DNA of 64,000 bases from Limnomonas spitsbergensis. Taxonomy: Eukaryota; Chlorophyta; Chlorophyceae; Chlamydomonadales. This document shows, piece by piece, positions 1,571 to 64,000 of the stretch. Where the stretch lies: positions 1,674,001 to 1,738,000 of the forward strand of contig JAYJMM010000110.1 in assembly GCA_037349105.1 (NCBI GenBank), in the 5' to 3' direction. Both the position numbers and the translations under genes were made by a program. The notes beneath the pieces are model-generated. The model was not told the DNA's origin, did not search any database, and was given only the letters and a program-made list of their open reading frames with translations. Position 1 is the stretch's first letter. Each line of letters starts with the position of its first letter.

Positions 1571-4500
1571 TACCGGGGCCTTAGCCGCTGCTGCTTCTGC
1601 CGCCGATGCCGTGGCGAGTCGTAGGCAGGATACCTCACACTCAGATCTGTCTGCCGCGGCCACCGACGCTGGCATCTCTGGAGGGAGAGCCCTGGAGAGG
1701 CTGTCAGGAGAAGCAGCTGGATTAGGAGTAGGACCAGGAAGAGAAGCAGCAGAAGCAGGGGGTGAAGCAGCAGCAGGAAGAGCAGCAGCAGAAGCAGGAA
1801 ACGAAGCGACAGAGGCAGCATCTGGGAGAGAAGCAGCAGCAGGTGCAGGGGAGCATGGGTTGCAGCAGCCTTCGTCTGCACCGCACATGTATGTTAGTGA
1901 TCCAAGCACTGCCAAAGAGGCGGGGGTGGTGGAGGAGGAGGAGGAGGAGCACTCCAGAGGCGAGAAGACAGCCAAGGAAGCCTCCTACGCCTCCTACGCC
2001 CCCAGCGGCGGCGGGGGCGGGGCTGGCGGGGGTGCCTTCGTCATATTGAGTGGTGTCCGCCTATTGTCGGCAAGCCGGTCGGCCTCCCCGCAGCGTAGCC
2101 TCCTCCCGCCCCCGAGCGCCTCGAGCGGCGCCCGGCACCGCGTGCCCTCCCTGAGCCCGTTCGGCTCGGTGACGGCTCAGGGGGCCAGCCTCCCTGGCTC
2201 GAACTCGCCGAATGGATCCCCAAGATCCCCGCGACTTGATCCGGCTGTGTTCCCGCAACCGGATCCGGCTGCATCTCCACGATTGAATCCGGCCAGATCT
2301 GCGCCGCCCGTAGCTGCAGCTGCGCCGCTGTCGGTGCCGCTACCTCCCTCCGGCGCTTCCGCCCCGCGGGCCAAGAGCGGACTGAGCGCCAGCGGCTCCT
2401 CCGGCCCACCCTCAGCTGCAGCCGACTCGTCTGCGCTGCCCTGGGCGTCGTCCGCCTCGGCGCGGCAATCAGCAGGCAGTCCAGGAGCGAGCCTGCTCGG
2501 CTCGCCGGGCGTCCCGCGGGCTTTCAGCGCTAGGCTGGCCCTGAGCGGCAGCCAAGCGGCGGACGGCCACGGCGGCGGGCGGCCGCCAGCCGCGCCGCCG
2601 CCTCAGCCCCAGCCCCCGCCGCTGCCGCTGCACCGCGAGTCCTCGGAGGGAGACTGGCTCGACAGGGACTCCAGCTTCCGCTCGATCGGGCCGCTGGCGG
2701 GCACGCCCGCGCCGCTTCTGACACGTGGCAGCATGGTGCGGTACAGCGCCTACACCGCGCCCCCACCGGCCTCCGTGCTGTCCGAGGAGGCTTCCTCGGC
2801 ATGCCTCCGTGGTGCCGCTGCCTGCGTACATCCGGCCGTGGACGCCACCCCCGGGCAGATGGCCTACCCTCAGCTACGCCCGGCTAACGCTCCCATGGTG
2901 CGATGCGCGGGGCAAGCCAATTCCTCGGTCGTCATGGCGAGGAGCTACATGCCGCTGACGGCAACCCGCGCCGCGTCTGCAAGGCCAAGGGTGGGTCCGT
3001 ACTGCTGCTGTACATGCACTGCTCTCTGTGTACTGTCCATGTGCTACCCTAACTGTACTGCCCATGTGGGCATGTGCTAAGGCCGTCGTATACCATGTAT
3101 TAAGGCTATTGTACTGCTGCCATTGTACTGCCCATGTGCTATGGCCGATGTAGTCTATGTGCTACTACCATTGTACTACGGCCACTGTATTGCCCATGTG
3201 CTGTACTGCTGTCTATGTAGTGCGCTTGTGCTGCCCTCATGTACTGCCAATGGCCTATACCAGTGTCCTGTAGATGTGCTTTCCTCTCCCTCAAGAGAAG
3301 CGTTGTTCAGCAGGGTGGGAGGTATCAGGACACTGGTGACAGATTGTGGACGCCAGTCGGAAATCGAGACTTTTGGTCGTTGTTTTGCCCCGAGTGAGCA
3401 GCATAGAAAGAAAATCTCCATTCGTACCCGAGGGCGGGCAATTCAAACCCACGGTGATAAGCGCCAACACTCGACTTGAACCCTAATCCTTGTGCTTGCC
3501 CCTGCTGCTGCCAGAAAAAAAACATGTAGATGCTATGGCGGTTGTACTGCCTACATGCTACGGCCATTGTACTGCCCATGTGACCCCCTGAACCCCTGTG
3601 TGTACCCTTGGCTGCTGTCAGACACGTGTAGATGCTACGGCCATTTTACTGCCCATGTGAAACGCTCACCCCTGTGCTTTTCCTTGCTGCTGTTAGACAC
3701 GTGCAGATGCCGCCCTCTCCCTCTTCAGCACCACGCGCGTGTTTGAGCGCAACATGAACAGCAAGCTCGAGTGGCACTCGCAGCAGGTGCTGTCCCTCCA
3801 GATGCGGCAGGGGGCCATGGCAGCGGCATCAGTGAGTGGGCAGGGAGTGATGGAGGGAGAACCGGTGAGGGGGAGGTGGTGAGGGAGAGAGCACTGGTGA
3901 GGGGGAGGAGTGATCATTCCTGAAACTCTTGTAAACAAATCGTAAAATTCCTGAAGATTGACATGGTTTTGTCAGAACTGGTCAGTGCGCAGCACCGGTC
4001 AGTCCCTTCAGTACCTTCAGTGTTTAGCAGGTTTCAGCTCAATGTGCCTTCCTTAAATGCGCCCTCTGGATACCGAAGTGCAAAGTTCTGATTTATGGTA
4101 GTCATGAAGCCCTCATGCCCCCTGGACTGGTGCCCGCTAAGGTAGCACGATATGGCATGATACAGCACGATATGGCATGATTCGGTGCCGATTCAGCCGG
4201 ATTGTAACACCAAGGTCGCACAATATGGCATGATTCGGCACAATATTGTGCCGAATTTACGGCATCGGTTATAGCCTGATGGTGCAACAATGGCACCCTC
4301 TGGCCTGAACAACGATTTCTTTTTGAATCATGAGGCACGCCACCTCCAAGCCCACTTCCATACCCGTGCTCCTGAGCACCATAGGGTCCTGGCTGTGTAC
4401 GGCCCTTGCGGTAGCTGTTGCGTAGCTGAGTTTCAGCCACTGTTGCGTAGCTGAGTTGCGCAGCTTTTAGGGTTAAGGGTTTTGGGTTTAAAGGGGGGTC

Positions 4501-7500
4501 TCCTCACTCCTCAATCCCCCCAAGGGTAAAATTTCAGCCACTGTGTTCGCAAGGCAGATTCTGCTAATTTTGCCAGGAAGAGTTCTTTGTCACGTGCGGC
4601 GCAGGACTCCTGAATTACGGCGTAATCGTACCGCACTGCGTAGGGCCCAGGCTGCAGATATGTCTGCTGTGGCGGCTAGTGCCCGTTGGACTTTTCCGTT
4701 GTTTTGCCAGTCTTAAGCCTGCCGGCCTGCCCCCTTACTCCCTCCCATCCCATGCAGGCTACAGTGCACGGCTCACTTAGAGCCATGACAGCTGCGGCGG
4801 CTGGTGCCCGTGCAACTGTTCCATACTTTTACAAATCCAAAGCCTGCCCCCTCCACCCTCGCCTCTCCACTTCAGGCTGCAGTGCACCGCTCAGTAGTCA
4901 GAGATAGATATGGCTGCTGCTGTGGCGGCGGCTGGTGCCTATTGAACTGTAACATTGCTTTACAAATTGAAAGCCTATCCCCTACCCTTCGCATCTCCCC
5001 TTCAGGCTTCAATGCACAGCTCGGTCAGAGACATGGCTGCTGCTCTGGCGGCGGCTGGTGCCCATTGAACGATTACACTGTTTTACAAACCCCAAACCTA
5101 CTCCATCCCATCGACCGCAGTCTGCAGTGCACGGCTCAGTCTGGGATATGGCTGTTGCAAAGGCCTCCCCGCCCGTCTGTCTGTTTTATTCCTGTTACAA
5201 ATCGTTAACCTGCCCCCCCTGCCCATCCCTCGTAGGCTGCAGTGAACGGCTCACTTAAGAGACATTGCGCCTTGTCCCTTGACTTTCCTATCTGACTTAA
5301 GGCTTGCTGACGTGGCCGAGCTTTATTTAAGTAGGGCCCAGACGTGTAACGTCGTTAAGTTAAAGACGTTGCTGCTGCTATGGCGTCAGTTGCTGACTTC
5401 TCTCCCCTCTCTCCAATCTCTCCCCTGCAGGCTGCAGATCACGGCTCACTTCGAGACGTTGCTGCTGCTGTGGCGGCAGTCGCTGACCCCCTCTCTCGTC
5501 TCTTCCCTGAAGACTGCAGTGCATGGCTCACTGATGAGGGGCATGGCTGCTACTGTGGCGGAAGCTGGTGCCCCTTGAACCGTTCCATGTTTTTTCAAAT
5601 CAAGCCCACCCCCCTCCCGTCCCCTCTCCCCCACAGGCTGCAGTGCACGGCTCGATTCGAGACATGACAGCTGCGGCGGCTGCCGAGCAGAGCCGCACGG
5701 CGGTCGCGGCCGAAGCGGTGGCAGCTGCTCACGCTGAAGCAAATGCAAAGGCGGCTCCAAGGGTCGCCCTAGGTGAGCACACTTGGCCCTGTAAGAAGCG
5801 GTGCATGCGGTGCAATTGAAATAGAGATACCGTAGGTGGATTTGGAGGGGTGGTACTTATATTTTGAGAGCGTTCAGCAGGGCCCAGCGGAATCCCAGCG
5901 GGTATGCACCATTCTATACTTATATTTTGTGGGCCGTAGGCAGAAGACCGGGATGATCTCGGTCGGTGAGACTCCGGTGATATATAATGTCATAAACGGG
6001 CCATGCTTCTCCTCTGTACGCTTTTGTTCATTGAATCATCCCCATTTCCCATCTGCTGGGCCTTTAAACTGTGTGCCCACACATTACAGAGGCAGCTGCA
6101 AGCGGGACTGATGAGGGGCACGCATTCCATATGTGGGCATTCAGTGGTGCAAGAAGTAGGGCCGAGTCCGCAGCCAGTTTAAGAAGGACCAAACATCTAG
6201 GCAATCCAATACAACTGAAATAACCGACCCCAGTACACGTTCAAAATATTATGTACCTAACACATATCGGCCTTGCATGAAAGGCTCAGCCGTAACAGTT
6301 CCCATTGACTGTTTGGGAGAGATAAACACAGGAGGGAATTAGGTTTCATCAGCTTGTTTAAATGAGGGAAAGAGAGCCTCACTTGATTGCCTGTGCGAGT
6401 TCCAGAATTTGCACATCCGGTAGCATGCAAAACTCGAGTGCATACTACGAGGAGGAAAAACAATTTGGCCTATGTTGCGGAGTGTCCACCGCCAAACTTC
6501 AATACCCCAACCGTTGTTCAATAACTAAGGGTTACTATAGCCATGTTCTAACATGCACCCCCTTGACAAATCAAGAAACGGCATGAGCCATATTGCATAT
6601 TAATGTACTGTATACAAAACATTTTATAAGACGTTGACATTAAGAGCAAGCTTATCAAGCTCGTGCATTGAACCCTTTTGAGTAGGCTAGCTGAGGAGTT
6701 GGCTAGACATTGTTGTTAAGTCGTAAAAGCAGCAGTATTCCAATGTACCCTCATGTTCAATCTGACATGCACAGCCTCACGTGCACAACCATACGAACAA
6801 AACATGATGACAAATACCGGTAACTTGAGAGACTTTCTTCAAAGGGTACTACAGCCGCATACTAGCTAAGAATTAGCTCCAAAACATCTGGATATTTAGA
6901 AGCAACTATAAAGGCCTCTTGGACGCTAGCCAGTGGCGCATGTTCTGGCCAACCCAGAAACAAGCGCACCAATGCCTTGTGGCCACCCTCAGCTGCCCAA
7001 ACCAGCGCCTCGCCATCCCTGCAGTCCGCACGAGGTGCATGCTCTGGCCAATCCAGCATCATACGAGCCACCGCTTCATGGCCTCCCTCAGCTGCCCTAA
7101 TCAAAACCAGGCCATCCCTGCAGTCCGCACGAGGTGCATGCTCTGGCCATTCCAATAACGTGCGTGCCACTGCTTCATGACCACCCATAGCTGCCATAAC
7201 CAACGCAAAGCCATCGATGCTGTCCGCTGGAGGTGCATGCTCTGGCCAATCCAGCAACATACGCACGAATGCCTCATGGCCACCCTTAGCTGCCTTAACC
7301 AACGCCTCGCCATCCCTGCAGTCCGCACGAGGTGCATATTGTGGACAATCTGGCAACATACGAGCCATTGCTTCATCACCACCCGTAGCTGCCACAACCA
7401 ATGCAGAGCCATCCCCGCTGTCTGCAAGGGCTGCATGTTGTGGCCACTCCAACAACATACGAGCCATTGCTTCATGACCACCCTTAACTGCCCTAATCAA

Positions 7501-10500: not shown

Positions 10501-13500
10501 TTGATACGATTCTGGATACGAAATCCCGTTCCCCAAACCTGCATCCCCCTAACCCTGGATTTCCCTGCAAAACCAATTTGTTGCCCTCTGCCCATGCTGT
10601 GTTAAGGTGCTGCCCGTCCGATCTCCGCTGCCGACCGTGAGGCCGTCAAGCACAGCAGGGCCTCAGCCTGGGGGCCTGCCTCCAGCCTGGTGGGCCTGCC
10701 AACCGGCCAGGTGCTCCAAATGGCGCAGGGCGCGTACCTCACTTTCCCTGGTGAGCAGCTAGTTGTACTGCCCATGTACTGCTCATGTTCTGCCCATGTA
10801 CAACTCAGGGCTGGTAGAGTGGTAGGCCTGCTAACCGGCCAGGTGCTGCAAATGGGGCAGTGCACGCATCTAACGTTCTCGGACGTGCAGCTGGCTGTAC
10901 CGCCCCAGTGCTGCTCATGTACTGCTCATGTACAGCTCAGGGTCCAGGACAGGGCCTGCTACCCCTGCATGTGCTGCATGTGGGGCAGGGCGTGCACCCC
11001 ACGTTCCAGGATAAGATGCTGGTTGTACTGCCCCTGTACTGCCAACGTACTGATAATGTTCTGCTAATTTACTGCACTACATGGGTACAGCGGCTGAACT
11101 TACTTTGCCGGTCAGCTCTTTCATCCGTTGCCGCTTGTGCCACAGTGAGGTACTTTTACCTCTCTCTGAGCTCTACAACCCAGAGAGCCTGTTGCGCCTT
11201 AACCGCCCTGGGACCCAAATTTAATTATTGGCGGGATCCGCCACGGTGAAATAAGCTACCTAAACCCTGCTCCCTTGAACCCTGAAGAGTCCAGCTTCAG
11301 CGGGACTAGACCCTTCAAGGTGGAGCCTGACACGGGCATGCTGTTTGATAAGCGGACCGCCCAGGACACGCCGTCCTCACAGCAGGGGTTCATACGGCCG
11401 GAGCGGGCAACAGGCCCGGCTGCCGCCGGCGGTGCCGCCGGCACCGCCGGTGCGGCAGGCCGGGGTGGGCAGAGGGCGTCGAGCGCCAGGCCTGCCGCCC
11501 CGCCCGGGGGGCGGCCGTGCTCCGGCGGGCGGCGGCCCGTCGACGGCGTGCGGCCGAACGGCGTCCCGCTCTTGCGGGGCAGCCAGCAGCGGGCCGCGCA
11601 GGGAGAGGGGAGTGGGGAGGCGAGGAAGTGCTCGTCGGCGAGACCGGTGAGCAGGGGGGGGGGTAGGGTTAAGGGTTTATGGTTTATGGTTTAGGCGAGG
11701 CCGGTAAGTGGAGGGAAACTCAAGTGCTTGTCTCCCGCACTTACCCGAAGTGGGGCATGTCAATGTGGGAACCTTGGCTGTAGATTGGGGGGGGGAGGGT
11801 AACGGGTTAAGCTCGGACTTATGTTCGACAGAACCCTGCCACCAAAACGTAAGACCTTAGCAAGTCACTGTGGGAACCTTGGTTGCAGCTGGGGGTGCAG
11901 GGTGAAGGTTAAAGGGTTGAGACTGGACTAAATTTCGACAGAACCTCCAAAACTCTAAGACCCTCATCAAGCTGGTGTGGGAACCTGGGTTGCATCTAGG
12001 GTTTAGCTTGACACCCTTAACCCTTAACCCTAAACCTGGGTTGCATCTAGGGTTTAACTTGGTAACCTCAACCCTTAACCCTAAACCTGGGTTGCATCTA
12101 GGGTTAAGCTTGGCACCCTAAACACTAAACCCTAAACCTGGGTTGCATCTAGGGTTTAACTTGGTAACCTCAACCCTAAACCCTAAACCTGGGTTGCATC
12201 TAGGGTTAAGCTTGGCACCCTAAACACTAAACCCTAAACCTGGGTTGCATCTAGGGTTTAACTTGGTAACCTCAACCCTAAACCCTAAACCTGGGTTGCA
12301 TCTAGGGTTTAACTTGGTAACCTCAACCCTAAACCCTAAACCTGGGCTGCATCTAGGGGTTAGCTTCCCACAGGTTGAGGTTTGGGACTGCATTCGTTTT
12401 TGGGCGGTACATTCTGCACATCTGGTACAAGCATGCATGCTGAGTCATAATGCAATTTTTTTGCACGCTAGACGGTACAGCAGGCGGTACAAGCATAAGC
12501 GCTGAGTCGCTGAGTCGCACAAATGCGACACACGCCAGGCATCATCAAACAAATCCCTGCGGCCCAACTCCTCCCAGTAGTCACCCAAATCCCCATAGCA
12601 CCTTGCTCAAGGCTATGGTTCATGGTGATTTAGGGTTTGGGGTTCATGGTTTGGTGATTATAGTGTAGGTTTGAGTCTATGTCTAGTCTACAGTAGCCTA
12701 AACCCTCAATCCTCAACACATCCGATTGCCCCTGCCTGTCCACCATAGCGCCTTGCTCAAGTTCATGGTTTATGATTTGGGCTTTAGGTTTAAGTCCCTG
12801 TGTAGCAGGGATTGTTTAAGTGGCATTCGGAATTAACTTTGGTTGCCAGAAGCAGCGAGTTCTGACGGAGTTTTTGGTGAAGAGCGCGCCGCAGGCGCCG
12901 AAATTGTCCCGATCCGAATTGATTTTGACGATTTCCGTCACCGCGCCACAGAACCTCGGCTTCGCCGAATTCATTGTTTGGTTACCACTTTGGTTACGAC
13001 TCGTAACCAGTACGGTAACCTGCTGTCTAGTCTTCAGTAGCCTAAACACTTAACCCTCAACAAATCCGAAAGACCCTACCGGCCTACCTCCCCAGCAGTT
13101 GCCCAGGTTCCCACAGCGCCTATTTGAGGGCTTGACTCTGGGGTTGAGGGGGGCGAGTCTTAGCAAATCTTTGGGATCCATGGTCTTAGCTAAGTCTGGT
13201 GTCAACTCTGATTCCGCGAGAACCTAACCACCAAGCTGCAACCGTGGTTCCCACAGCGCCTCGTCAAGAGTTTGAGGTCTGGCTTCAAGGCTTGAGGGTT
13301 AATGCGTTAATGTTAAGGTTATAGGATTAGCTTTCAAGGTCAAGTTTATGGGTGAAGGGTTCAGAGTAGATAGAACTTATCGGTGATGTTTCACGCAAGT
13401 ACTGCATGTACCGCCCGCAGTACAAAAATATGCGGAGCGGCACGGCCGGGGTCGCCGTGAATCTGACCACCATCAACGCGACGCTGTTCGATGAGGAAGC

Positions 13501-51479: not shown

Positions 51480-52490
51480 TCAAATTTACAGCTACTCGAT
51501 CAGGGTAGAAGTCTTATGCATTGAAATTCCCTGCCTGGGCAACTACGACTGGTCAAAGCCCGGACCCCACTGGCCCATTTGTGGCTGCTTGGCAGCACGC
51601 TATACGTACTGAACAGTATGGAGGACACGTCAATCTCAAATACGCATGATGGATGCCGAGTTAATAACGCCCCCAGGATATCTAGAACGGGGAGGCTTCA
51701 GGCGTGCCCACAAAGAATTGTCATGTTGACAGCTGAGGGTCCAGGCCATGGCACCATATCAAAAGTAGCGTGCAACTCGGACGAGCGTCAGTAATGATTT
51801 TCGAATACCGGTAGACAGTCCAAAAATGAGGAATTCAATTAAGGGCCTCGCTCTTTCAATTCACTTCAAGTACAAACAGGTGACATCCCATGTGCTAAAT
51901 AAAGCATAGTCAACAATCGCAATCGCCACCTTTGCTTTTGGCTAACGTCAGGAACAGCATGGCCAACGGACACATGGGCCTGGTGCAGCAAGGTGCCAGC
52001 TGCTTGGGCCACTGGTTGTAGGCTGGTTAAGATTCGGTCCCCATCCGCCCAGTATTGCACGACGAGCAGAGCCAGCCAAAGGCAGTCAGGTACACACTCA
52101 TGTAGTGTGTGCCTCCATCCCTCTCTCTTTCTCTCTCTTGCCTCCCTGGCCCTAAATGACCAAGTCAATAATGACCAGTATTGGGCTCTGAAATCGTAAC
52201 AGGACCTCATGCTTGAACCCCGGTAGGACAGTCTGTGACACAGTAAAACAGTAATATTCCGACTGAACAAAATTCTTATGACGTAGGACCGTCACAGCCG
52301 TATTACACAAAACAGATATGACGTCACATCACCAAATGACCAAGTACGTGCGGCGAATCTCCCGTGCCAGCTCCCCTGAACCCATCTCTCTTTCTTGCCT
52401 CCCTGTCCTAAACAGCTTTTACTGTCCTGCGGAGCATCACATTAAATCATGCCAATGACGTTTCACCTTAAAATGACCAAGTCAATGACA
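51480..52490. other. Between tubulin copy B and the TFIIIC gene (convergent): no gene seen
   Basis: A dispersed-repeat copy lies at 51965-52090 (CAGCTGCTTGGGCCACTGG, TGTAGGCTGGTTAAG). The phrase AATGACCAAGTCAATRA is repeated at 52156 and 52473, and CGTGCCAGCTCCCCTGA at 52362 and 52529, indicating a local duplication around the end of the TFIIIC gene. Confidence 0.5.
52303..52307 (-). promoter_or_regulatory. Possible TGTAA polyadenylation signal of the TFIIIC gene
   Basis: Minus-strand TGTAA lies 192 nt beyond the stop codon at 52499. Confidence 0.3.
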
Positions 52491-52498: not shown

Positions 52499-55400
52499 CT
52501 AAATCACCAAGTATGTGCGGTATATCTCCCGTGCCAGCTCCCCTGACCCGCTGGCCGCGTAGATCATGGCCAGATTATGCGCAGCCTCCATTTGCAACGG
52601 TCCGCCACCCCCTACCCCCCTTTGCCCCGTTTCCGAGTCGCTCGGCGAGCCACCATCTGACGCCCCACGCCCAAGCGATGCCCCCTCCTCCTCATCCCCG
52701 CAACACTCATCCCCCCCTGTCACCACCGCCGCAGCAGCAGCAGAAGCAGAGGCTTCTCCCGCCGCCGCCGCCGCACCAGCGCCCTCCGGCGCAGATCCCC
52801 CCCGGCACTGCAGAGCCTCCGTGTAGTAGTGCGCCGCGATGTTCGGCAGGCCCAGCTGGTGCGCCGCACGACCCATGTTGTAAGAGGCTTCTTGGGTGCA
52901 TGCCGCGACAGCCACACCGCTGGCGAGCGACGGCGGCGGCGGCGGGGCCGTACCGAGCGGGACCGGCGGCTGGTGACCCGCGGGCCGCGCAGTCTCGACG
53001 CGCCTTCGCATGTAATCCTGCGAAGAGAAGGGCACGGCACGTCAGCAGCTCAGCGCCTTTCTTCCCCGCGCGTTCCAGCTGCAATTGAGCGGGACGTCAC
53101 GGCCTGAAGCCAGGGGGGACTTGGAGTAGCAAGCCCTGCAGCTTAGGCCACCGGCCTTAGGCCGGTCAAATTTCCCCCCAGAATCATTGGGCGGTCAAGG
53201 TGTTGTCCCAGTCGGCCCAGCGGTGACCTCGTCTCATAAACGCAAAGCCATTGAGCACTGTCCGGCACTCTCCTGGTGGCCGCCTGGTGCAGGGTACATG
53301 ACGGCAAGCCCCTTAACCCCAACCCCTGGCCTACATGAAGGCAAAGCCATTGAGCACTGCTCCGTGCCTGTCCGACGGTGTCCAGCACTCTCTTGGTGGC
53401 CGCCAGAAGTACATGACGGCACAGCCCCTTCGCCCCAAACCCCCACTTCAATTAACCATTGAACCATACCCCAAACCCTCGCCTGCATGAACCTAAAACC
53501 ATTGAGCACGGCCGGGTACCTGTTTGGCACTTTCTTGGTGGTCGCCAGATTCAGGTACGCGATGGCAAAGCCCTATACCCTTAACCCTCACCTGCATGAA
53601 ACCTTAACCCCAAACCCTCACATGCATTGATGCAAAGCCATTGAGCACTGCTTGGTACCTGACTAGCAATCATGGTTAAGCAATCATTAAGAGGAATGCG
53701 ACGGCAAAGCCGTAACCTCCAATCCCTCACTTAAACGACCCCTAAACCCCAAACCCTTGCCTGCATGAACCCAAAACCCTCACCTGCATGAACGCAAAGC
53801 CATTGAGCATGGTGCCTGTCTGGCACCCTCTTGGTGGTTGCCAGAGGGATGCGATGGCAAAGCCCAGAACCCCCAACCCTCACATGCATCAAGTTAACAA
53901 CCCTTAACCCCCACCTGCATGAACCCTTTACCCCAAACCCTCACCTGCATGAATGCAAAGCCATTGAGCACTGCTCGGTGCCTATCCGGCACCCTCTTCG
54001 TGGTTGCCAGATTCAGGTAAGCGACGGCAATGCTCAGCAGCAGCAGCGGCTCCTCAGGCCAGAAGCGGTACGCGTGGAAGTACTCCACTAGGGCCTCGGT
54101 GTACAAGCGGTACATGCTGTGCACATGGCCCTTCAGGGGGCACAGGGCACACATGGTGGTTTAGAGTTTAGGCACACACAGGGGTTGAGCGTTTAGGCCC
54201 ACACAGAGGTTCAGGGTTAAGGCTCACACGGGGGTTAAGCGTTTAGGCCCGCACGGGGTTAAGGGTTTAGACCCACACGGGAATTTAGGGTTAAGGCACA
54301 CACACGGGTATGATGTTTTTTTTGTTAAGGTTTGGGCAAACATGGAGTTATATACTTCTATACGTTTAGGGTTCAGGCAATCACGGGGTTACGGTTTTAG
54401 GAGTAAGGCAAACCTGGGGTTTAGAGTTAAGGAATGGTTTTAGAGGCGCTGACCTCAAGAGGCCAGCCCACCCTCCCATAAAAAAAAGATGCAGGAAAAG
54501 CAAGGGGCATACATTTCGGTTCTGGGAAGAACTATTGGACATTTTGGTTCAGGGAAGAACCATTGGAGAAGATGGAATACCAGGGCTTGATGCACTGGAT
54601 AATCAGGAGCTTGGACAAGCTTTTACGTTTTGGGGTATAGATTTAGGTTCAGGGTTTAGAGCTTGATACTCTGGTTGATCAGGAGCTTGGACCAGGGGGG
54701 CATCCTGAATCTGTTATTGGCTGTACCTTGGGTCTTACCATGACACTTCACTATTGTATGGCGACGCAATGAGTAAGGGGCTCAGGGGCAAGATAATGGC
54801 ACCTCTCTGACACGTTTCTTACCATCAGCATCCCACTCCTGCCCTTGACCGCCCTATCAAAGTGCACACACAGCCCCCCCACGAAATAAGTGGAACCTCG
54901 CTGCCCCTACCCAGCTGCCATCTATCCCCTCCCTCGACCACCCTCAATGCAGCCCTCCCCTCCCCCCCTCCTGGCCAGAACCCTCCCCCGCCCCCCCGCC
55001 CTCGACTGCATGATCATGACCGGCACGCTGGCCAGCTTAAGGGTTCAGGGCTTATGGCTGAGGGTTTAGGATTACGGTTACCGTATAGGGTTGGATCTAA
55101 ACTCCGCCCCCCCCCCTGCCATCACCTGCGCGATCATGACCAGCAAGCTTAGAGTTTAGGGTTTGGGGTTTAAGGTTGAATCTTAAACCCAAACCCGAGC
55201 CCCTACCCTCACCTACATGATCAGCATTGGAAAGCTGGCCAGGTTAGGGGTTGAGGGGTTACAGCTATAAGGTTAAGAGTTGGATAAAAACCCTCACAAA
55301 AAATCAACCCCAGCCCCCGCCCTCACCTGCATGATCATGACCGGCAAGCTGGCCAGAATTAGGGTTCAGGGCTTACGGCTGCGGGTTTAGGGTTGAATCC

Positions 55401-58400
55401 TAACCCTTACCCCAGCCCCCTCCCTCACCTGCATGATCATGACCGGCAAGCTGGCCGGGCACCTGCGCCGCATCGTCGAAACGTGCACCGCCCAGCTGCG
55501 CACAGTGCCGGCCCGGGCGCTGACGCGGCAGTAGCGAGACCAGGCCGCCAGGCTGGCGGGCCACCGCACGCACAGGCCGCGCAGGAGCGCCATGGCCGGG
55601 CCGTGCTGGCCGCCTCGCGACAGTGCATCCACGAGCAGCATCGCCAAGCGGTCCCTGGTGGAGCGGGGGAACCACCTACGCACGGGCAGGCAGTAAGGAC
55701 AGGCAGTACACGTCGGCGGGATGGGCAGGTAATACGCAAGGACAGGCAGAACTGACAGGCAGTACACGTGGGCGGGATGGGCAGGTAATACGCAAGGACA
55801 GGCAGTACTGACAGGCAGTACACGTGGGCGAGATGGGCAGGTAATACGCACGGGCAGGCAGTATGGACAGGCAGTACACGTGGGCGAGATGGGCAGGCAC
55901 TACGCAAGGACAGGCAGAGCCAACAGACAAGGCGTATGGGCAGGACGAGCAGGCAAAAAGAAAGGACAGGCAGGACAAACAGGCAAGATGCATGGGCTGG
56001 ATGGGCAGGCAGTACGCATGGGTAGAAAGTGTGAAAATGCTAAGATAGACGGTGGTGACTTGTGTGAGAGTAGAGCACAGCCGGGTTTAAGCTTACACCC
56101 TAAATGCTCCTCATCCCTGAACCCTAAAACCTCCTCATCGTCAATTAGGTAAGCTTTAACCCTAAACCCTGCTCATCCTTGAACCCTGAACCCTCATCAC
56201 CGTCACCTTAAATATAGAATGCCCCTGAAATGAACCCTTAACCCTGAAATGCACTCAAAGCCCTTATCCCTAAAATGAGCCCTGAACCCATAACCCTATA
56301 CAGAACTCTTAACCCTCAACCCTAAATTAAACCCTAAATGAAACCTAACCCTCAACCCCCGTCTCCCACCTGGACTGCTGGCTGCTGAGGTCGTGGGCCT
56401 TGGACAAGAGCGTAGCGGCTTCGTCACACTGCCCTTCTTCAACCATTGTACTGAAGGGAGAGGGGGAAAATGTACTCAATCATTTTTTGTTCATACAGCA
56501 AACATATTGAATAGAATTTTTGTTGGTGATGTGCCTAGATGAAAGGGTGGGGCGAAAAATTAAGTCAGTCGTTTTTTTTTAGCCACCATCCTGAATAGAA
56601 ATGGTGTTCGTGTTCGTGATGTGCCTAGATGGAAGGGAGAGGTGGAAAATAAAGCCAGCCATTTATGTTAGCCACCATCCTGAAAATGTGTGTCGTTCAT
56701 GCTATACTGACATACCTACATAAAGGGTGAGGTGAATAATGGAGTCAAACAACTCATTAATTGTTTTCGTATCGACCATCCTGAATATAATTCGTGATGT
56801 ACATACATAAAGGGTGACAGTTTATTTATCGAAAATGAGCCGTCACTGATCTTTGATCGAATTTAAGACACTTCTGCTCATTTAACGAAATTAAGACATT
56901 TCTGCTCATTTGTTGAAATTAAGACGTCCCTGCCAATTTATCGAATTCAAGACGTCTCTGCTCATTTAACGAAATTAAGAGGTCTCTCCTCATTTATCGA
57001 AATGAAGACGTCACTGCTATTTTATGAAATCTGATACGTTGGCTACAGCCTGCCGGGGGTGGGAGTGGCCGTGGGTGGGTCTGGATCTAGATCGGGGGAA
57101 GGGCTCTGAGGTTGGGATCATCCTGAGGTCCCTGTGCCGGGCGTGTTGGGGAACCATGTTTTGCCGACACTGCTCATGGATCGAAATTAAGCGGTCACGA
57201 CTCATTTATGGAAATTTAGCAGTCAAGGTATCCTGAGCGCCGAGTGCTGAGCTCATGCCCTGACCAGCATTGAAACGACTGCAGTGCACACGCACCCACG
57301 TACCTGCTCAGGTCCATGATTATGGACAGGTACGCCATATGGAGCCACGGCTGCCAACCGCGGACCAACTGTGATTCAAAATCAAACTAGAACCGGCTGT
57401 ACTCACATACAAGCACCTGCTCAGGTCCATGAACATGACCAGGGACTCCTTGTGAAACCGCAGCGAGCGAGCCACGGCCACCAACCGCCGACCAATTGCC
57501 TCTCAAATATTAACTCGAACCGGCTGCACACACACACACACACCTGCACAGGTCCATGAACATGGACAGGTACTCCTCGTGGACCAGCATCGAGCGAGCC
57601 ACGGCTGCCGCCGGGCCGCCGACGCGGACGCCGCCGGCGGCGTCATTCAGCTGATCCGCCTCAAGGCCCGCTAGGTAGGCCTCGGCCGCCCGATCGGCCT
57701 CCAACGTTTTGGAGGAGCGGCGCTCGCGCCGCGTTGCGCCCTTGAACACGCTCTCTGTCTCGTGTGCGCCCTCGCCTGACGTAACACACACACATCAGGA
57801 TCGACAGTGATGGTTGAAGTCAAGTTAGCTGGCGAGCCTTCCTTCACTCTCTGTCTCATGTGCGCCCTCGCCTGACCTAAACACGCATGAGGGTTCAATC
57901 AACACAGTGATGGTTGAAGTAACGATAGCTGGCGACCCTGCATTCACTCTCCGTCTGCTGGGCATCCTTGCCTGACACAAACACGCATGAGGGTTTGACC
58001 TGTACCTCCATTCTCATAGCCTCACCCTTGCGGCCGCCCCTGCTCATGATGATCCGCCGCCGGTTGACAGCCTTGAGCACCTGCGAAAATTACATGGTCA
58101 TAAATTATTTACTGGAGCATGTAAATAATAGAGCTTTGTTTGTTACATTCTGAATGACCGAATGCTCCCAAGCCTTGAGCAGTTGAAAAATTACACAGCC
58201 ATGCTTTATTTACTGGGAATAGTGTTTAAAAATAATAGTGATTTGATTATTACTCGCTTGATGGCAAGTTGGCAACAAAGACTGAACACCGGTATCGTGA
58301 ACACTACCAAACCTTGAGCAACAAAACATATAGCGCAGCAGAAGTCGCATAGGGCTCACGAGGAAACGACACACCCACACCCACACGCTTGGACTCAAAG

Positions 58401-61400
58401 GCTCAAGCCAGCTGGCTTTTGCTTGAAGCCCCGCTGGCCAAGAGTCTCGTAACCCAACTGTCTTTCGTGCCGGAGAGTGCCAGAGGCACACAGGAGTTAG
58501 GGTTTAGGGTTTAGGAGCTGGAGTTAGGATCCCAGCTGTCTTTTGTGCCAGAAAGTGTTGGGGACACACAGGACTAACATGGTTTAGGGTTACGGTACCT
58601 AGAAGCCCCAACACTTGGCCCGAAACCTTGACCCTAAACCCTAGCCTGAGAGCATCCGTCCATCCAACCCCTCGACCTCCGTTTGGAACCGGGATTCTCA
58701 AAGCCTACAAACGTGAAGGCCTGCACCCTAAACATGAAGGCCTGCACCCTAAACATGACGGCCTGCACCCTAAACATGACGGCCTGCACCCTAAACATGA
58801 AGGCCTGCACCCTAAACATGAAGGCCTGTACCCTAAACATGAAGGCCTGCACCCTAAACATGAAGGCCTGCACCCTAAACATGAAGGCCTGCACCCTACA
58901 CATGAAGGCCTGCACCCTAAACATGAAGGCCTGCACCCTAAACATGAAGGCCTGCACCCTAAACATGAAGGCCTGCACCCTAAACATGAAGGCCTGCACC
59001 CTAAACATGAAGGCCTGCACCCTAAACATGAAGGCCTGCACCCTAAACATGAAGGCCTGTACCCTAAACATGAAGGCCTGCACCCTACACATGAAGGCCT
59101 GCACCCTAAACATGAAGGCCTGCACCCTAAACATGAAGGCCTGCACCCTAAACATGAAGGCCTGTGCCCTACACATGAAGGCCTGCACCCTAAACATGAA
59201 GGCATGTACCCTAAACATGAAGGCATGCACCCTAAACATGAAGGCCTGCACCCTAAACATGAAGGCCTGCACCCTAAACATGAAGGCCTGCACCCTAAAC
59301 ATGAAGGCCTGCACCCTAAACATGAAGGCCTGCACCCTAAACATGAAGGCCTGCACCCTAAACATGAAGGCCTGTACCCTAAACATGAAGGCATGCACCC
59401 TAAACATGAAGGCCTGCACCCTAAACATGAAGGCATGTACCCTACCATGAAGGCCTGTACCCTACACATGAAGGTCTGTACCCTAAACATGAAGGCCTGC
59501 ACCCTAAACATGAAGGCCTGCACCCTAAACATGAAGGCATGTACCCTAAACATGAAGGCATGCACCCTAAACATGAAGGCCTGTACCCTAAACATGAAGG
59601 CATGCACCCTAAACATGAAGGCCTGCACCCTAAACATGAAGGCCTGCACCCTAAACATGAAGGCCTGCACCCTAAACATGAAGGCCTGCACCCTAAACAT
59701 GAAGGCCTGCACCCTAAACATGAAGGCATGCACCCTAAACATGAAGGCATGCACCCTAAACATGAAGGCCTGCACCCTACACATGAAGGCCTGCACCCTA
59801 AACATGAAGGCCTGCACCCTAAACATGAAGGCCTGCACCCTAAACATGAAGGCCTGTGTACTACACATGAAGGCCTGCACCCTAAACATGAAGGCATGTA
59901 CCCTAAACATGAAGGCCTGCACCCTAAACATGAAGGTCTGCACCATAAACATGAAGGCCTGCACCCTAAACATGAAGGCCTGTACCCTAAACATGAAGGC
60001 CTGCACCCTAAACATGAAGGCCTGCACCCTAAACATGAAGGCCTGTACCCTAAACATGAAGGCCTGCACCCTAAACATGAAGGCCTGCACCCTAAACATG
60101 AAGGCATGTACCCTACCATGAAGGCCTGTACCCTACACATGAAGGCCTGTACCCTAAACATGAAGGCCTGCACCCTAAACATGAAGGCCTGCACCCTAAA
60201 CATGAAGGCCTGCACCCTAAACATGCATGTCTGCACCCTTAACATGAAGGCATGTACCCTAAACATGAAGGCATGCACCCTAAACATGAAGGCCTGTACC
60301 CTAAACATGAAGGCCTGCACCCTAAACATGAAGGCATGTACCCTAAACATGAAGGCCTGCACCCTAAACATGAAGGCCTGCACCCTAAACATGAAGGCCT
60401 GCACCCTAAACATGAAGGCCTGCACCCTAAACATGAAGGCATGCACCCTAAACATGAAGGCATGCACCCTAAACATGAAGGCCTGCACCCTAAACATGAA
60501 GGCCTGCACCCTAAACATGAAGGCCTGCACCCTAAACATGAAGGCCTGCACCCTAAACATGAAGGCCTGCACCCTAAACATGAAGGCCTGCACCCTAAAC
60601 ATGAAGGCCTGCACCCTAAACATGAAGGTCTGCACCATAAACATGAAGGCCTGCACCCTAAACATGAAGGCCTGCACCCTTAACATGAAGGCATGTACCC
60701 TAAACATGAAGGCGTGCACCCTAAACATGAAGGCGTGCACCCTAAACATGAAGGCCTGCACCCTAAACATGAAGGCCTGTACCCTACACATGAAGGCCTG
60801 CACCCTAAACATGAAGGCATGTACCCTAAACCTGAAGGCCTGCACCCTAAACATGAAGGCCTGCACCCTAAACATGAAGGCCTGCACCCTAAACATGAAG
60901 GCATGTACCCTAAACATGAAGGCCTGCACCCTAAACATGAAGGCCTGCACCCTAAACATGAAGGCCTGCACCCTAAACATGAAGGCCTGCACCCTAAACA
61001 TGAAGGCCTGCACCCTAAACATGAAGGCCTGCACCCTAAACATGAAGGCATGTACCCTAAACATGAAGGCATGCACCCTAAACATGAAGGCCTGCACCCT
61101 AAACATGAAGGTCTGCACCATAAACATGAAGGCCTGCACCCTAAACATGAAGGCCTGTACCCTAAACATGAAGGCCTGCACCCTAAACATGAAGGCACGC
61201 ACCCTAAACATGAAGGCCTGTGCCCTACACATGAAGGCCTGCACCCTAAACATGAAGGCCTGTACCCTAAACATGAAGGCCTGCACCCTAAACATGAAGG
61301 CCTGTACCCTAAACATGAAGGCCTGCACCCTAAACATGAAGGCATGTACCCTAAACATGAAGGCCTGTACCCTAAACATGAAGGCCTGCACCCTAAACAT

Positions 61401-63754
61401 GTAGGTCTGCACCATAAACATGAAGGCCTGCACCCTAAACATGAAGGCCTGCACCCTAAACATGAAGGTTCAGCGTTATACAGAATTTAACTACAACGAC
61501 CTGTAACTCCTGTATGTCTCTGGGTATAGGGTTTAGGGTTTAGGGTTTTAGGGTTGTGCCAACGTGGGGAAGCCAATAAGGGTTGAGGGTATACTGCCAG
61601 CTTGGCGTCCCTGTCGAGGCTTTCAAGTTGGCCACAATCAATGCCAGGCCATCCTGCACGTTTTTGAGACCCTCTCCTCATACCTTCCACGGGAAACAAA
61701 CCCTACCCCCAGTACTCGAGTAGTGCCACACTGCCACCGTGGCACCCTTTCTGAAGAGGACTTCTGGTTTCAGCGTGGCGTCGTTTAAAAAACGGCCCCT
61801 CCCCCCCCCCCCCTTTGCTCCGGGACAAAACAAATACCGGTACTTCTGGTACCAGTGTGGCGTCGTTTAAAAAAACGCCCCCCCCCCCCTCCCCTTTGCT
61901 CCGGGACCAAAACAAATACCGGTACTTCTGGTTTGAGCGTGGCGTCGTTTAAAAAACGGCCCCTCCCCCCCCTCCCCTTTGCTCCGGGACCAAAACAAAT
62001 ACCGGTACTTCTGGTTTGAGCGTGGCGTCGTTTAAAAAACGGCCCCCCCCCCCTCCCCCCCTTTGCTCCGGGACCAAAACAAATACCGGTACTTCTGGTT
62101 TGAGCGTGGCGTCGTTTAAAAAACGGCCCCCCCCCCTCCCCCCCTTTGCTCCGGGACCAAAACAAATACCGGTACTTCTGGTTTCAGTGTGGCGTCGTTT
62201 AAAAAACGGCCCCTCCCCCTCCCCCCCTTTGCTCCGGGACCAAAACAAATACCGGTACTTCTGGTTTCAGTGTGGCGTCGTTTAAAAAACGGCCCCTCCC
62301 CCCCCCTCCCCTTTGCTCCGGGACCAAAACAAATACCAGTACTTCTGGTTTCAGTGTGGCTTCCATTCTGACAACTCAGCAACACCCCACCTCGGGCGCC
62401 AGCTTGACATCGTTCTTGAACAAAGAATCCCCACCCGAGGGAATCCCCCCCCCCCCTACCTCCGGCGCCAGCGTGGTGTCTTTTGACGCTATCACATCGG
62501 CCTCCAGGAGGGCCAGGCTGTCCTGGACTAGAGGCAGGACCGCGGCCACGTACTCCTGCTGCTTCCCAAGCTGCAAGTGGGTGGGTGGGTAGTTTGTGGG
62601 TGGGTGGATTTTTCAGTAAGTAGGCGTGAGGGTTGAGCAGGGCCAGGCTGTGTTCGAGCCGATTCGTAAGTCAACTGTAGCTGAATTGTAGCTGAATATA
62701 AACCCTCAAAAGGACACCGAAAGCCACACACACACACACACACACACCTGTAGCATCAGCTTGTTCCTGCGCATGAAGTGCGAAACCTCATCGCGCGTCA
62801 TGGAAGGCTGCACGGCAGTCGGAGCGCCGGAGAGCAGCAGCGCCGGGCTGCTGGCGGCGCCAGCCGCCGCTGCTGTCCGCCCGTCATCGTCGTCGTCATC
62901 GTCGAGATCCATGGGATCCTCGCCGCTGGGTGCAGCACCTCCGGCCGCCGCCGCCGCCGCGGCCGCTGCCGCCCTGAATGCGGCCTGCTGCTGCTGCTGT
63001 TGCTGCTGCTGCTTTTGGGCTTCACTCAGGCGTCGCAGGAGAGCTGCCGCTTCCTCCACCTGGCCGCGCTCCGCGTAGAGCTCAGCCAAGGTCAGGCAAA
63101 TGCCAGAAAACCTGCGCCACCCAGGTATAAGGGTTAAGAAATGAGTGTTTGAGGCTTACATTTCAGGGTTTAGTGAGCATTGCGAGTACCGCATATTTGT
63201 GTGACTTGAAATCCCACACTTGGCTGCGGCTTTCTTGGCGCGTTCGAAAAGCACTGAAGGCAGTGCACTTCCCCCCTCCCCCCCCTTCCTCATTGGTGTT
63301 CAGGATTTTGAGAGCTTCGTCTTTTGGATCAAGGGTTTAGTGTTTAGGGCCTATGCTAAGAGTTGAGGGATAGCTGTCAGGGTTTAGGGCATCTATTTAG
63401 CCAGAATCGACCAACTAAGCCAGATTCAGGCAGCCAGATCCAGCAAAACTCAGCCAGATCCAGCCAAGATTAGCCAGATATAGCCAGATCCAGTCAGATC
63501 TAGTCACAGTCCAGTCAGATCCTGTCAGATCCAGTCACATCCAGCCAAGATCCAGCCAGATCCAGCCAAGATTTAGCCTGATCCTGTCGGATCTAGCGGT
63601 ACGCAGATCCTGGTGGCCATCACCTGGAGTCGGCGCTGTCCACGAGCGCCATCTTCTCCTGGTACAGTGCGACCCCGTCCTCCAGTCGGCCGAGGGCGCG
63701 GAAGCAAAGCAGAAGCCGCTCCCACAGGGCGGGGTCCTTGCAGCTGGGAAGCAT
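52499..63754 (-). CDS. GTF3C3: TFIIIC TPR subunit (GTF3C3/TFC4 family), C-terminal 641 aa, nine exons, 5' end outside the window
   Basis: Exons in order are 63754-63624, 63111-62748, 62570-62460, 58080-58026, 57775-57544, 56450-56370, 55675-55429, 54130-53945 and 53017-52499, which sum to 1926 nt with every phase agreeing. TFIIIC binds internal promoters of tRNA genes and recruits TFIIIB for RNA polymerase III; this subunit is its TPR scaffold. Family marks at the C-terminus are clear: NGFAFMQDYMRRR, then ASYNMGRAAHQLGLPNIAA, HYYTEAL and a final AHNLAMIYAASGSGELA ending in YLVI. TPR-like helices recur upstream (RFSGICLTLAELYAERGQ, EEGQCDEAATLLSKAHDL). Oddities are a poly-Gln/poly-Ala/poly-Asp insert in exon 2 of this set and a roughly 70-residue Ala/Gly/Ser/Glu insert in the last TPR hairpin. 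A missing small exon between 62460 and 58080 cannot be excluded, though phase fits without one. Confidence 0.85.
53115..53225 (+). repeat. Dispersed repeat (SINE-like), partial copy
   Basis: AGCAAGCCCTGCAGCTTAGG, CCACCGGCCTTAGGCCGGTC, TTGTCCCAGTCGGCCCAG match the family at 22075 and 31070. It lies in the last TFIIIC intron. Confidence 0.5.
53225..53944 (-). repeat. Five downstream copies of the 3' end and donor of TFIIIC exon 54130-53945
   Basis: The true exon ends with codons for TTKRVPDRHRAVLNGFAFMQ and donor GTGAGGGTTTGGGG. Decayed copies (plus-strand mark GCAAAGCCATTGAGCA, with GTTGCCAGAT-like ends) lie near 53240, 53335, 53485, 53630 and 53790, spaced 95-165 bp. Most keep the exon-end ATGCAG/GT junction and the CCCTAAACC-type intron start. 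Some truncate earlier than others. Confidence 0.85.
54150..54440. repeat. About 33-bp degenerate repeat with GTTTAGGC words
   Basis: Repeated GGGGTTAAGCGTTTAGGC and CACACACGGG phrases upstream of the exon at 54130, in the TFIIIC intron. Confidence 0.6.
54990..55428 (-). repeat. Four downstream copies of the 3' end and donor of TFIIIC exon 55675-55429
   Basis: The plus-strand mark CTGCATGATCATGACCGGCA, AGCTGGCC (exon end plus donor) is present at the real edge (55429). Copies lie at about 55327, 55210, 55127 and 55008, each followed on the minus strand by GTGAGGG and T/G-rich intron. Copies contain only the last 20-30 exon bases. Confidence 0.85.
55676..56000 (-). repeat. Upstream copies of the acceptor tract of TFIIIC exon 55675-55429
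   Basis: The plus-strand words TACGCACGGGCAGGCAGTA and GGACAGGCAGTACACGTGGG recur every 35-57 bp. The first is the tract directly next to the exon (acceptor GCCCGTGCGTAG). Confidence 0.7.
56460..57030. repeat. Two tandem arrays in a TFIIIC intron (about 95 bp x 4; about 30 bp x 7)
   Basis: At 56470-56820 a unit with GATGTGCCTAGATGRAAGGG and TTAGCCACCATCCTGAA recurs. At 56825-57020 the unit is CTCATTTATCGAAATTAAGA, CGTCTCTG, with decayed relatives at 57173-57220. Confidence 0.75.
57290..57543 (-). repeat. Two downstream copies of the 3' end of TFIIIC exon 57775-57544
   Basis: The exon end encodes ARSMLVHEEYLSMFMDLC. Copies at about 57418-57490 and 57301-57365 retain CACCTGCTCAGGTCCATGA, ACATGRMCAGG and GAGCGAGCCACGGC. 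Both keep a GT at the donor position. Confidence 0.85.
57776..57980 (-). repeat. Two upstream copies of the acceptor and 5' end of TFIIIC exon 57775-57544
   Basis: The plus-strand mark CACTCTCTGTCTCATGTGCG, CCCTCGCCTGAC (exon start plus acceptor) recurs at 57846-57877 and, more decayed, at 57945-57976, with GTGATGGTTGAAGT between copies. Confidence 0.85.
58095..58700. other. TFIIIC intron, proximal part: no further exon seen
   Basis: This holds short duplications (ACCTTGAGCA words at 58066, 58175 and 58310; CTGTCTTTCGTGCCGGAGAGTG at 58458 versus CTGTCTTTTGTGCCAGAAAGTG at 58535) and TTTAGGG words. Confidence 0.5.
58710..61475. repeat. 21-bp satellite with telomere-like core, about 131 copies
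   Basis: The unit is CATGAAGGCCTGCACCCTAA plus A. Variants are GCATGTAC, GTCTGCACCATAA and CTACACATG. Each copy contains CCCTAAA. The 21-bp period leaves frames open for hundreds of codons on both strands. It sits in the TFIIIC intron between exons 62460 and 58080. Confidence 0.95.
61580..61690 (-). pseudogene. Decayed duplicate of TFIIIC exon 62570-62460
   Basis: The minus strand encodes LKNVQDGLALIVANLKAST, which aligns with LPLVQDSLALLEADVIASK of the true exon without a gap; by eye about two thirds of bases agree. It lacks a convincing donor. Confidence 0.6.
61755..62459 (-). repeat. 82-84-bp array (about 8 copies) plus a 62365-62420 copy, derived from the 3' end of TFIIIC exon 62570-62460
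   Basis: The exon end encodes SKDTTLAPE with donor GTAGGG. A near copy at 62375-62420 encodes KNDVKLAPE followed by GTGGGG. The 82-84-bp units at 61761-62365 encode NDATLKPE at the matching place, followed by a GTACCGG-type sequence, poly-purine and poly-G. A graded series from exon to array is visible. Confidence 0.8.
62725..62747. repeat. (CA)n microsatellite at a TFIIIC donor site
   Basis: On the coding strand the intron starts (GT)n immediately after CAG at 62748. A second (GT)n starts the intron after exon 57775-57544. Confidence 0.9.
63130..63600. repeat. 10-11-bp repeat in a TFIIIC intron
   Basis: CAGCCAGATC and CAGTCAGATC words recur from 63400 to 63600. The preceding part (63130-63390) shows only TTTAGGG-like words. 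Confidence 0.75.
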
Positions 63755-64000
63755 CTGCACGTTTTTTGAAAATTTGAAATCAAATTTGAAAAACCATATT
63801 GTTTTCTTCGAACCCAGGTCGGCAGGTTCCACAGCGCGGGGTCCTAACAGCTGGAGAGCATCTGCGAGAGATTCAAAACATTTGAAATCGTGTATAGAAA
63901 GTCATTTGGTCCTCCTGGCGGCCGAGAGCGCGGAAGCAAGGCAGCAGCCGCTCCCACAGCGCCGGGGCCTTGCAGCTGGGTCAAAACTTGAAACCACGTT
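63755..64000 (-). repeat. Two upstream copies of TFIIIC exon 63754-63624
   Basis: The exon begins MLPSCKDPALWERLLLCFRA. A copy at 63810-63868 has a stop after the fourth codon and soon diverges. A copy at 63905-63985 keeps an open frame for about 25 codons (SCKAPALWERLLPCFRALGR, QED) with mostly conservative changes. The second could be a usable alternative exon. Confidence 0.8.

What the first reader, a model, noticed from the sequence alone, without database searches (positions are those of the whole stretch)
3520..64000. Exon-intron junctions are tandemly multiplied in three unrelated genes
At least ten exon edges in the unknown gene, ALG13 and the TFIIIC gene are flanked by decayed tandem copies of that same edge. 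Upstream arrays carry the acceptor plus the exon 5' end; downstream arrays carry the exon 3' end plus the donor. Copies rarely span the whole exon. The two tubulin genes, with short introns, have none. This looks like a genome-wide mode of intron growth that uses exon edges as seeds (by slippage or break repair), and it leaves dozens of decoy splice sites. I know of no described system with this exact pattern.
Basis: partly seen in the sequence, partly recalled or inferred. Interest (0 to 1): 0.9.

Follow-up and report, generated by a model that had tools for sequence, protein, structure and literature searches.

The report
Exon ends copied into neighbouring introns
In a green alga whose genome best fits the Arctic snow alga Limnomonas spitsbergensis, many introns contain head-to-tail copies of the ends of the exons beside them, most likely because short stretches of non-coding DNA keep duplicating next to themselves and a duplicated exon end does no harm.

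Summary
In the window, 10-11 of 29 tested splice edges of ALG13, the TFIIIC gene and an unnamed gene have significant copies beside them; the tubulins have 0 of 5. It is not local: aminopeptidase N, in a block chosen blind, has 112 copies of one exon's last 30 nt in an 11.7-kb intron. Over 11 genes, 28 of 77 donor and 25 of 77 acceptor edges have copies, but 8 CCT/HSP70 genes only 4 and 5 of 39. Wrong-edge controls: 1 of 72.

Random intron windows are copied as often (143/322, 136/318), so is DNA outside predicted genes (73/148, 66/148), and 2 of 9 stop-codon ends are copied too. Local tandem duplication seems to act on non-coding DNA at large; copies straddling an edge survive because the original edge stays. 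One exact 154-bp duplication spans an acceptor. A modest edge excess is not excluded: rate-matched uniform simulations under-predict edges 1.3-3 fold. Decoys mostly keep GT or AG; their use in RNA was not testable.

The parts
52499..63736 (-). GTF3C3-type TFIIIC subunit, 3' half of the gene: exons 63736-63624, 63111-62748, 62570-62460, 58080-58026, 57775-57544, 56450-56370, 55675-55429, 54130-53945, 53017-52499; the gene continues to higher coordinates in L029
   Evidence: phase-consistent exons; C. eustigma P0001 50% identity over 100% of query; PDB 8clk_D E=4e-14; spliced alignment
53227..53809 (-). 7 decayed copies of the 3' end and/or donor of exon 54130-53945 (53769-53809, 53741-53768, 53602-53660, 53572-53600, 53467-53521, 53311-53369, 53227-53265)
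   Evidence: donor z=16.0; protein-level copies
54993..55354 (-). 4 decayed copies of the 3' end + donor of exon 55675-55429 (55307-55354, 55193-55243, 55107-55149, 54993-55033)
   Evidence: donor z=16.2
57285..57454 (-). 2 copies of the 3' end + donor of exon 57775-57544
   Evidence: donor z=13.9
57847..57988 (-). 2 copies of the acceptor + 5' end of exon 57775-57544
   Evidence: acceptor z=15.3
63822..63980 (-). 2 copies of the acceptor + 5' end of exon 63736-63624
   Evidence: acceptor z=10.1
61760..62460 (-). 83-bp tandem array and a copy near 62.41k whose units resemble the 3' end + donor of exon 62570-62460; borderline
   Evidence: TRF, read by eye; z=4.0, 3.4; no hit at the cut
52318..52371 (-). 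copy of the CDS end incl. stop codon of TFIIIC in its 3' flank: an edge copy at a stop codon, not at a splice site
   Evidence: z=10.1, 11.3
16896..17540 (-). ALG13-like gene, exons 17540-17419 and 17042-16896 (C-terminal part)
   Evidence: 2ks6 E=3.3e-8; PF04101 E=6.2e-11; exons from gene finder
17147..17395 (-). 5 copies of the 3' end + donor of ALG13 exon 17540-17419
   Evidence: z=14.3
17620..17781 (-). 2 copies of the acceptor + 5' end of ALG13 exon 17540-17419
   Evidence: z=19.2
17096..17134 (-). copy of the acceptor + 5' end of ALG13 exon 17042-16896
   Evidence: z=7.9
4748..5559 (+). 7 copies of the acceptor + 5' end of predicted exon 5644-5772 of the unnamed gene (exon unverified; another predicted exon, 5431-5567, overlaps two of these copies and may itself be a decoy)
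   Evidence: z=12.9; 123-bp and 90-bp tandem arrays
10820..10990 (+). 2 copies of the 3' end + donor of predicted exon 10607-10710 of the unnamed gene (exon unverified)
   Evidence: z=6.5
39999..41560 (-). alpha-tubulin gene (exons 41560-41471 and 41249-39999; first exon not located), no edge copies
49550..51091 (+). second alpha-tubulin gene (exon ending 49621, start uncertain, and exon 49841-51091), no edge copies

Best explanation
Non-coding DNA of this genome undergoes frequent local tandem duplication of units of roughly 40-180 nt, often followed by further head-to-tail expansion into arrays. Placement is at or near random. Events wholly inside exons are removed by selection. Events that straddle an exon edge are tolerated, because the unit's original, exon-attached edge is still there and still works; the extra edge (exon end + donor downstream, or acceptor + exon start upstream) becomes intron and decays neutrally. 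Introns thereby grow and fill with exon-end copies and decoy splice sites. Shown in the sample: the copies, their direction, similar raw copying rates in introns and outside predicted genes, near-absence in exons, the fall-off within about 60-90 nt of the edge, codon-position decay, stop-codon copies, one exact (fresh-looking) duplication. Inferred: selection as the filter, a microhomology or slippage mechanism, non-use of the decoys.
For: Similar rate at edges and inside introns: donor 28/77, acceptor 25/77, internal 143/322 and 136/318; 55 paired introns, no significant difference. Similar rate outside predicted genes: 73/148 (C9) and 66/148 (C39) windows have a copy within 1 kb; whole window 68/150, C9 71/148, C39 36/149; exon windows 5/179 against their own exon. 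Profile across the edge is continuous (38 introns): donor -120..+120 = .09 .12 .47 .63 | .66 .54 .59 .68 .56; acceptor .41 .43 .41 .55 | .47 .31 .09 .04 .00. A purely geometric prediction from the intronic unit length (median 99 nt, n = 723) gives .87 .58 .31 .22 .15 of the intronic rate; observed donor 1.04 .78 .20 .15, acceptor 1.04 .69 .20 .09 0. Gene by gene, edge and internal rates tend to go together (11 genes, Spearman 0.57, p = 0.067). Non-splice edges are copied: 2 of 9 stop codons (z 11.3 and 6.9). Copies decay like neutral daughters of a constrained parent: identity at codon positions 1, 2, 3 = .90 .94 .81 (donor, 20 edges) and .86 .93 .75 (acceptor, 16 edges); donor GT .904, as codon positions 1-2. 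An exact 154-bp tandem duplication with 2-nt microhomology spans the acceptor of MnmA exon 2. 9 isolated exact two-copy duplications (two of them the same place in overlapping loci) have median 3 nt microhomology, null mean 0.86.
Against: Uniform-placement simulations whose internal rate (0.20-0.26) was near the observed 0.267 predict an edge/internal ratio of 0.39-0.88 (0.95-1.28 in runs with internal rates of 0.05-0.12, 0.49-0.81 for donors in runs at 0.61-0.81); observed 1.30 (donor) and 1.02 (acceptor). After copy-number weighting, donor edges exceed internal positions (0.348 v. 0.125, p = 0.044), acceptors not significantly (p = 0.57); that measure leans towards edges because the exon parent does not decay. 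Donor-near intron windows are copied more than random internal ones (.54-.68 v. .46). One blind gene (CCCH, C39 block) has 3 of 6 edges copied but 0 of 19 internal windows; CCT L030 shows the reverse, 1 of 12 v. 30 of 70. The observed fall-off into the exon is steeper than the geometric one beyond 60 nt. Acceptor AG in copies is kept at .984 per base, above codon positions 1 and 2 (p = 0.0015, 0.005), which pure neglect does not predict.
Confidence: 0.7

Rival explanations
1. Exon-intron boundaries are mutational hotspots for tandem duplication: something at the edge, for example base-composition change, R-loops or splicing-coupled breaks, starts duplications there preferentially, most of all on the donor side.
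For: Donor edge 0.348 v. copy-weighted internal 0.125, p=0.044; rate-matched simulations under-predict edges; donor-near intron windows .54-.68 v. .46 internal; CCCH gene 3/6 edges v. 0/19 internal; more copies on the donor side, 215 at 28 edges v. 44 at 20 edges. A family count also pointed this way but timed out and is not usable.
Against: Raw rates not different; no peak at the edge itself; similar density outside predicted genes; acceptor excess not significant; CCT L030 introns have internal copies (30/70) but 1/12 edges.
Confidence: 0.2
2. The copies are kept because they do something: donor copies next to a copied exon end in AG make AG|GT and could serve as recursive (zero-length exon) splice sites that let long introns be removed in steps, or acceptor copies could serve as alternative acceptors.
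For: GT kept in 85% of donor copies and AG in 92.5% of acceptor copies, per-edge means (28 and 20 edges); splice dinucleotides kept more than other dinucleotides (41 edges pooled, p = 9e-5); AG per base .984, above constrained codon positions; recursive sites are juxtaposed AG/GT motifs (PMC6110457, passages); my own spliced aligner used such copies as zero-length exons.
Against: Donor GT retention (.904) is what an invariant parent and neutral daughters give, and the excess has the same cause at least in part; decoy donors score lower than true ones (median 3.27 v. 5.24); the AG test is post hoc with 16 edges; no RNA evidence.
Confidence: 0.06
3. Assembly or gene-model artefact: collapsed or expanded repeats from long reads, or wrong exon calls.
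For: PacBio CLR/Canu assembly (PMC11228838, Methods part 1); array copy numbers may be inexact; some exon edges in my sample are wrong (L031).
Against: Copies differ from the exon edge at roughly 5-25% of aligned positions, which polished assembly error would hardly make; exon models of the three reference genes follow orthologues; wrong-edge controls 1/72.
Confidence: 0.03

Closest known systems
[quoted passage not shown] Hellsten et al. 2011, as cited in PMC4974935)
   Same: tandem duplication involving exonic sequence, protein unchanged, splice signals duplicated; PMC4974935 also reports an 83-bp tandem duplication inside a potato intron and repeated duplication of a 24-bp AGGT exonic segment in fission yeasts (passages)
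   Different: there the duplication makes a new intron; here an intron holds copies of its own flanking exon end, often many, in several genes; whether any intron was gained this way was not tested
Intronic tandem repeats in green algae (PMC3887541, C. reinhardtii and Volvox)
   Same: highest tandem-repeat density in introns, more repeats near intron-exon junctions (abstract and passages)
   Different: the motifs named for green-algal introns in the passages seen are dinucleotides (GT/AC); no statement there that a repeat unit contains the exon end and splice site
Recursive splicing sites (PMC6110457, Drosophila; passages)
   Same: AG/GT juxtaposition inside introns
   Different: no RNA evidence here; copies are decaying and repetitive
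Introner elements (recalled)
   Same: multiplication of intron-related sequence
   Different: introners are one family in many genes; here the copies found match their own exon edge

Membership tests
Intronic minisatellite / tandem-duplication growth | head-to-tail copies with unit of tens to about 200 nt | tested here: met
   spacing median 124 (donor) and 146 nt (acceptor); intronic nearest-copy distance median 99 nt, n=723; TRF
Intronic minisatellite / tandem-duplication growth | not restricted to splice junctions | tested here: met
   internal and extragenic windows copied at similar rates; stop codons 2/9
Tandem genomic duplication intron gain | exonic segment duplicated next to itself | tested here: met
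Tandem genomic duplication intron gain | the duplication creates a new intron at that position | not tested
   only proteins of relatives were at hand, not their intron positions
Introner elements | one sequence family inserted in many unrelated genes | not tested
   no family-wide search of intron sequences was made; edge copies match their own exon
Recursive splicing | AG|GT juxtaposition in the intron | tested here: inconclusive
   26 of 28 donor-edge families keep at least one GT at the copied junction; the AG before it was not counted separately
Recursive splicing | stepwise removal seen in RNA | not testable with these tools
   no reads available
   raw: no; copy-weighted and simulated: modest donor excess

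The most novel reading that the evidence does not exclude
Exon-intron boundaries, above all donors, are genuine hotspots of local tandem duplication in this alga, so that introns lengthen mainly by amplifying their own edges; the decoy acceptors are partly maintained (AG kept at 98% of bases), and the AG|GT junctions so created supply ready-made recursive or alternative splice sites from which new introns, shifted boundaries and cassette exons can arise.
Probability: 0.18. Interest if true: 0.85.

Novelty: new variant of a known kind. Interest (0 to 1): 0.58.

Why it matters
How introns lengthen without transposons, and how the spliceosome picks the right edge among many near-identical ones, are open questions. 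Here some genes offer a natural series: identical copies (two equal acceptors 154 nt apart in MnmA), decayed copies, and an array of over 100 copies. The IsoSeq data that the genome paper describes for this strain (PMC11228838) could show which copy is used. It also warns that ab initio annotation may string decoy copies into proteins: my own gene finder did so in aminopeptidase N and MnmA and chose a decoy donor in TFIIIC (MnmA).

Tried and rejected
Seed hypothesis in its strong form: not borne out on raw rates, kept open in a weak form. Selection against decoys: expected loss of GT/AG was not seen; an apparent excess retention is matched for GT by codon positions 1-2, while a small AG excess remains. 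Microhomology on all 106 exact two-copy pairs: discarded as most lie inside arrays; one search kept 9 isolated ones of 21. The first gene-finder run joined unrelated genes and was replaced. Several tests were post hoc and p-values are not corrected for their number.

Rows dropped before counts., aminopeptidase N: of 138 pieces 114 of zero length, two short ones (14 and 19 nt) and two weak ones were dropped, 20 kept; the end of the HExxH exon was moved 11 nt by hand. TFIIIC: four zero-length pieces dropped, the last two merged. MnmA: the first partial exon dropped, exons 3-5 and the last two replaced by gene-finder exons, because the guide protein had aligned to a decoy copy. Of 60 introns predicted in the eight CCT and HSP70 loci, 39 were used (22 of 27 CCT, 17 of 33 HSP70); the rest had doubtful edges. 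L031: the eight-exon chain was not open in any frame, so at least one edge is wrong; its 7 introns were still counted. The labels CCT, HSP70 subtypes and the subunit letters in my scripts are recalled beyond the Pfam family; 'predicted genes' are those of my own gene finder, which may miss genes. Searches looked only at the nearest 1.5 kb of long introns. Eight literature searches listed no paper whose title or shown abstract describes arrays of exon ends with splice sites in introns; the library holds only CC-licensed PMC papers and I opened six (in part). No comparison with relatives' genomes was possible.
Full report
What was checked. The window is G000:C110:1674001-1738000 of a genome of 260,226,709 bases in 124 contigs. 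TRF covers 41% of the window, 50% of a 100-kb block on C9 and 27% of one on C39 (printed before its script failed); both blocks were chosen blind.

Gene models. The TFIIIC gene is a GTF3C3 orthologue: 50% identity over the whole query to a C. eustigma protein and a match to PDB 8clk_D, with nine phase-consistent exons in the window and more in L029. ALG13 is confirmed by 2ks6 and PF04101. The 'unknown gene' stays unknown (no Pfam match) and its exons are gene-finder predictions. In the C9 block I found aminopeptidase N (orthologues such as P0011) and MnmA (PDB 9hlv E = 2.1e-45; P0131). With my own spliced protein aligner, and the hand corrections told under Tried and rejected, this gave a reference set of 41 exons and 38 introns.

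Observation. In the window 10-11 of 29 splice edges have copies. In the reference set 24 of 38 donor and 19 of 38 acceptor edges have a copy of the 30 exonic nt in the adjacent intron at z >= 4; probes 45-75 nt inside the exon 13/36 and 9/36; the far edge of the same exon 1/36 and 0/36. Aminopeptidase N is the extreme: 8 further protein-level copies of one exon end, 9-10 of another, and an 11.7-kb intron with 112 copies of the last 30 nt of the HExxH exon.

Extent. Adding four PF00118 (CCT-type) and four PF00012 (HSP70-type) loci gives 77 introns in 11 genes: donor 28, acceptor 25. By gene, donor and acceptor: aminopeptidase N 14/19 and 11/19; TFIIIC 8/14 and 5/14; MnmA 2/5 and 4/5; L030 1/6 and 0/6; L031 0/7 and 3/7; L032 0/3 and 0/3; L033 0/6 and 0/6; L034 0/6 and 1/6; L035 1/4 and 0/4; L036 1/5 and 0/5; L037-L038 1/2 and 1/2. 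The eight housekeeping loci together have 4/39 and 5/39. Two C39 genes, tested apart: CCCH donor 2/3 and acceptor 1/3, ankyrin 0/3 and 0/3, with two of its z values at 3.9 and 3.7. So it is widespread but uneven. TFIIIC was chosen because the finding named it; aminopeptidase N, MnmA, CCCH and ankyrin came from the blind blocks.

Is the edge special? Random intron windows, searched on one side only like the edges, are copied in 143/322 and 136/318 cases. Pairing each of 55 introns with itself gives no significant difference. The rate profile is flat from the intron into the exon and falls within about 60-90 nt, close to, though beyond 60 nt somewhat steeper than, what placing units of the intronic size at random would give. 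DNA outside predicted genes is copied as often, 73/148 and 66/148; a retroelement not at all, 0/150; exon windows against their own exon in 5/179 cases. Stop-codon ends are copied into the 3' flank in 2 of 9 genes, most of these ends being gene-finder calls. This points to a process that ignores splice sites. Results on the other side: a stricter count with copy-number weighting leaves donor edges above internal positions (0.348 v. 0.125, p = 0.044) and acceptors not significantly (0.273 v. 0.125, p = 0.57), although the raw internal rate at the same cut is 0.267 (p = 0.37 and 0.53; 66 introns of >= 300 nt). In crude simulations of uniform duplication, decay and exon constraint the edge/internal ratio was 0.39-0.88 where the internal rate was 0.20-0.26, and 0.95-1.28 where it was 0.05-0.12, against 1.30 and 1.02 observed at 0.267. 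A modest, mainly donor-side excess is therefore possible.

Mechanism. Identity between edge and copies follows codon position, as expected if the exon is constrained and the copies drift. One event looks fresh: an exact 154-bp tandem duplication with 2-nt microhomology over the acceptor of MnmA exon 2, giving two identical acceptors; use of the upstream one would add 154 nt and shift the frame. Nine isolated exact two-copy duplications (eight places) show median 3 nt of microhomology against a chance mean of 0.86, a small sample. Slippage or microhomology-mediated repair fits; which one is not shown.

Decoys. 215 donor copies at 28 edges and 44 acceptor copies at 20 edges span the junction (long introns searched over 6 kb); GT is kept in 85% and AG in 92.5% (per-edge means). 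Decoy donors score below true ones, decoy acceptors nearly the same. Splice dinucleotides are kept more than other dinucleotides, but donor GT just as constrained codon positions are; acceptor AG somewhat more. Whether decoys are used cannot be tested here.

Known or new. Tandem repeats concentrated in introns and near junctions are known in C. reinhardtii and Volvox (PMC3887541, abstract and passages), and tandem duplication as a source of new introns is known (PMC4974935, passages). I found no description of arrays made of a gene's own exon ends with their splice sites (searches, CC-licensed PMC only, judged from listings). I file it as a new variant of tandem-duplication-driven intron evolution.

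Noticed in passing
C9 block, aminopeptidase N (G000:C9, about 1051080): The functional donor of the HExxH exon appears to be GC (CAG|GCGAGG), while 29 of the 60 copies found in the first 6 kb of the intron carry GT.
   Followed up: partly
window 6862-8430 (-): Open 522-aa ankyrin-repeat frame with a 99-bp period: a tandem array that is probably coding.
   Followed up: partly
window 31829-35969, 25686-28813, 44710-47310: Large minisatellites (47 bp x 88, 137 bp x 23, 28 bp x 93) not tied to any exon that I verified.
   Followed up: no
window 58709-61468: 21-bp x 131 array inside the 4.4-kb TFIIIC intron; by eye its unit does not look like an exon edge.
   Followed up: no
G000:C39:4054254-4071489: Long Gypsy-like retroelement frames (label from reading, no family search) with no local tandem copies (0 of 150 windows).
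   Followed up: partly
window 39999-41560 and 49550-51091: Two alpha-tubulin genes with the same predicted 417-aa main exon product by eye, in divergent orientation about 8 kb apart.
   Followed up: no
window and blocks: Telomere-like AAACCCT motifs are scattered through introns and flanks (read by eye).
   Followed up: no
acceptor copies, 16 edges of the reference set: AG in decoy acceptors is kept at .984 per base, more than codon positions 1-2; post hoc and unexplained.
   Followed up: partly
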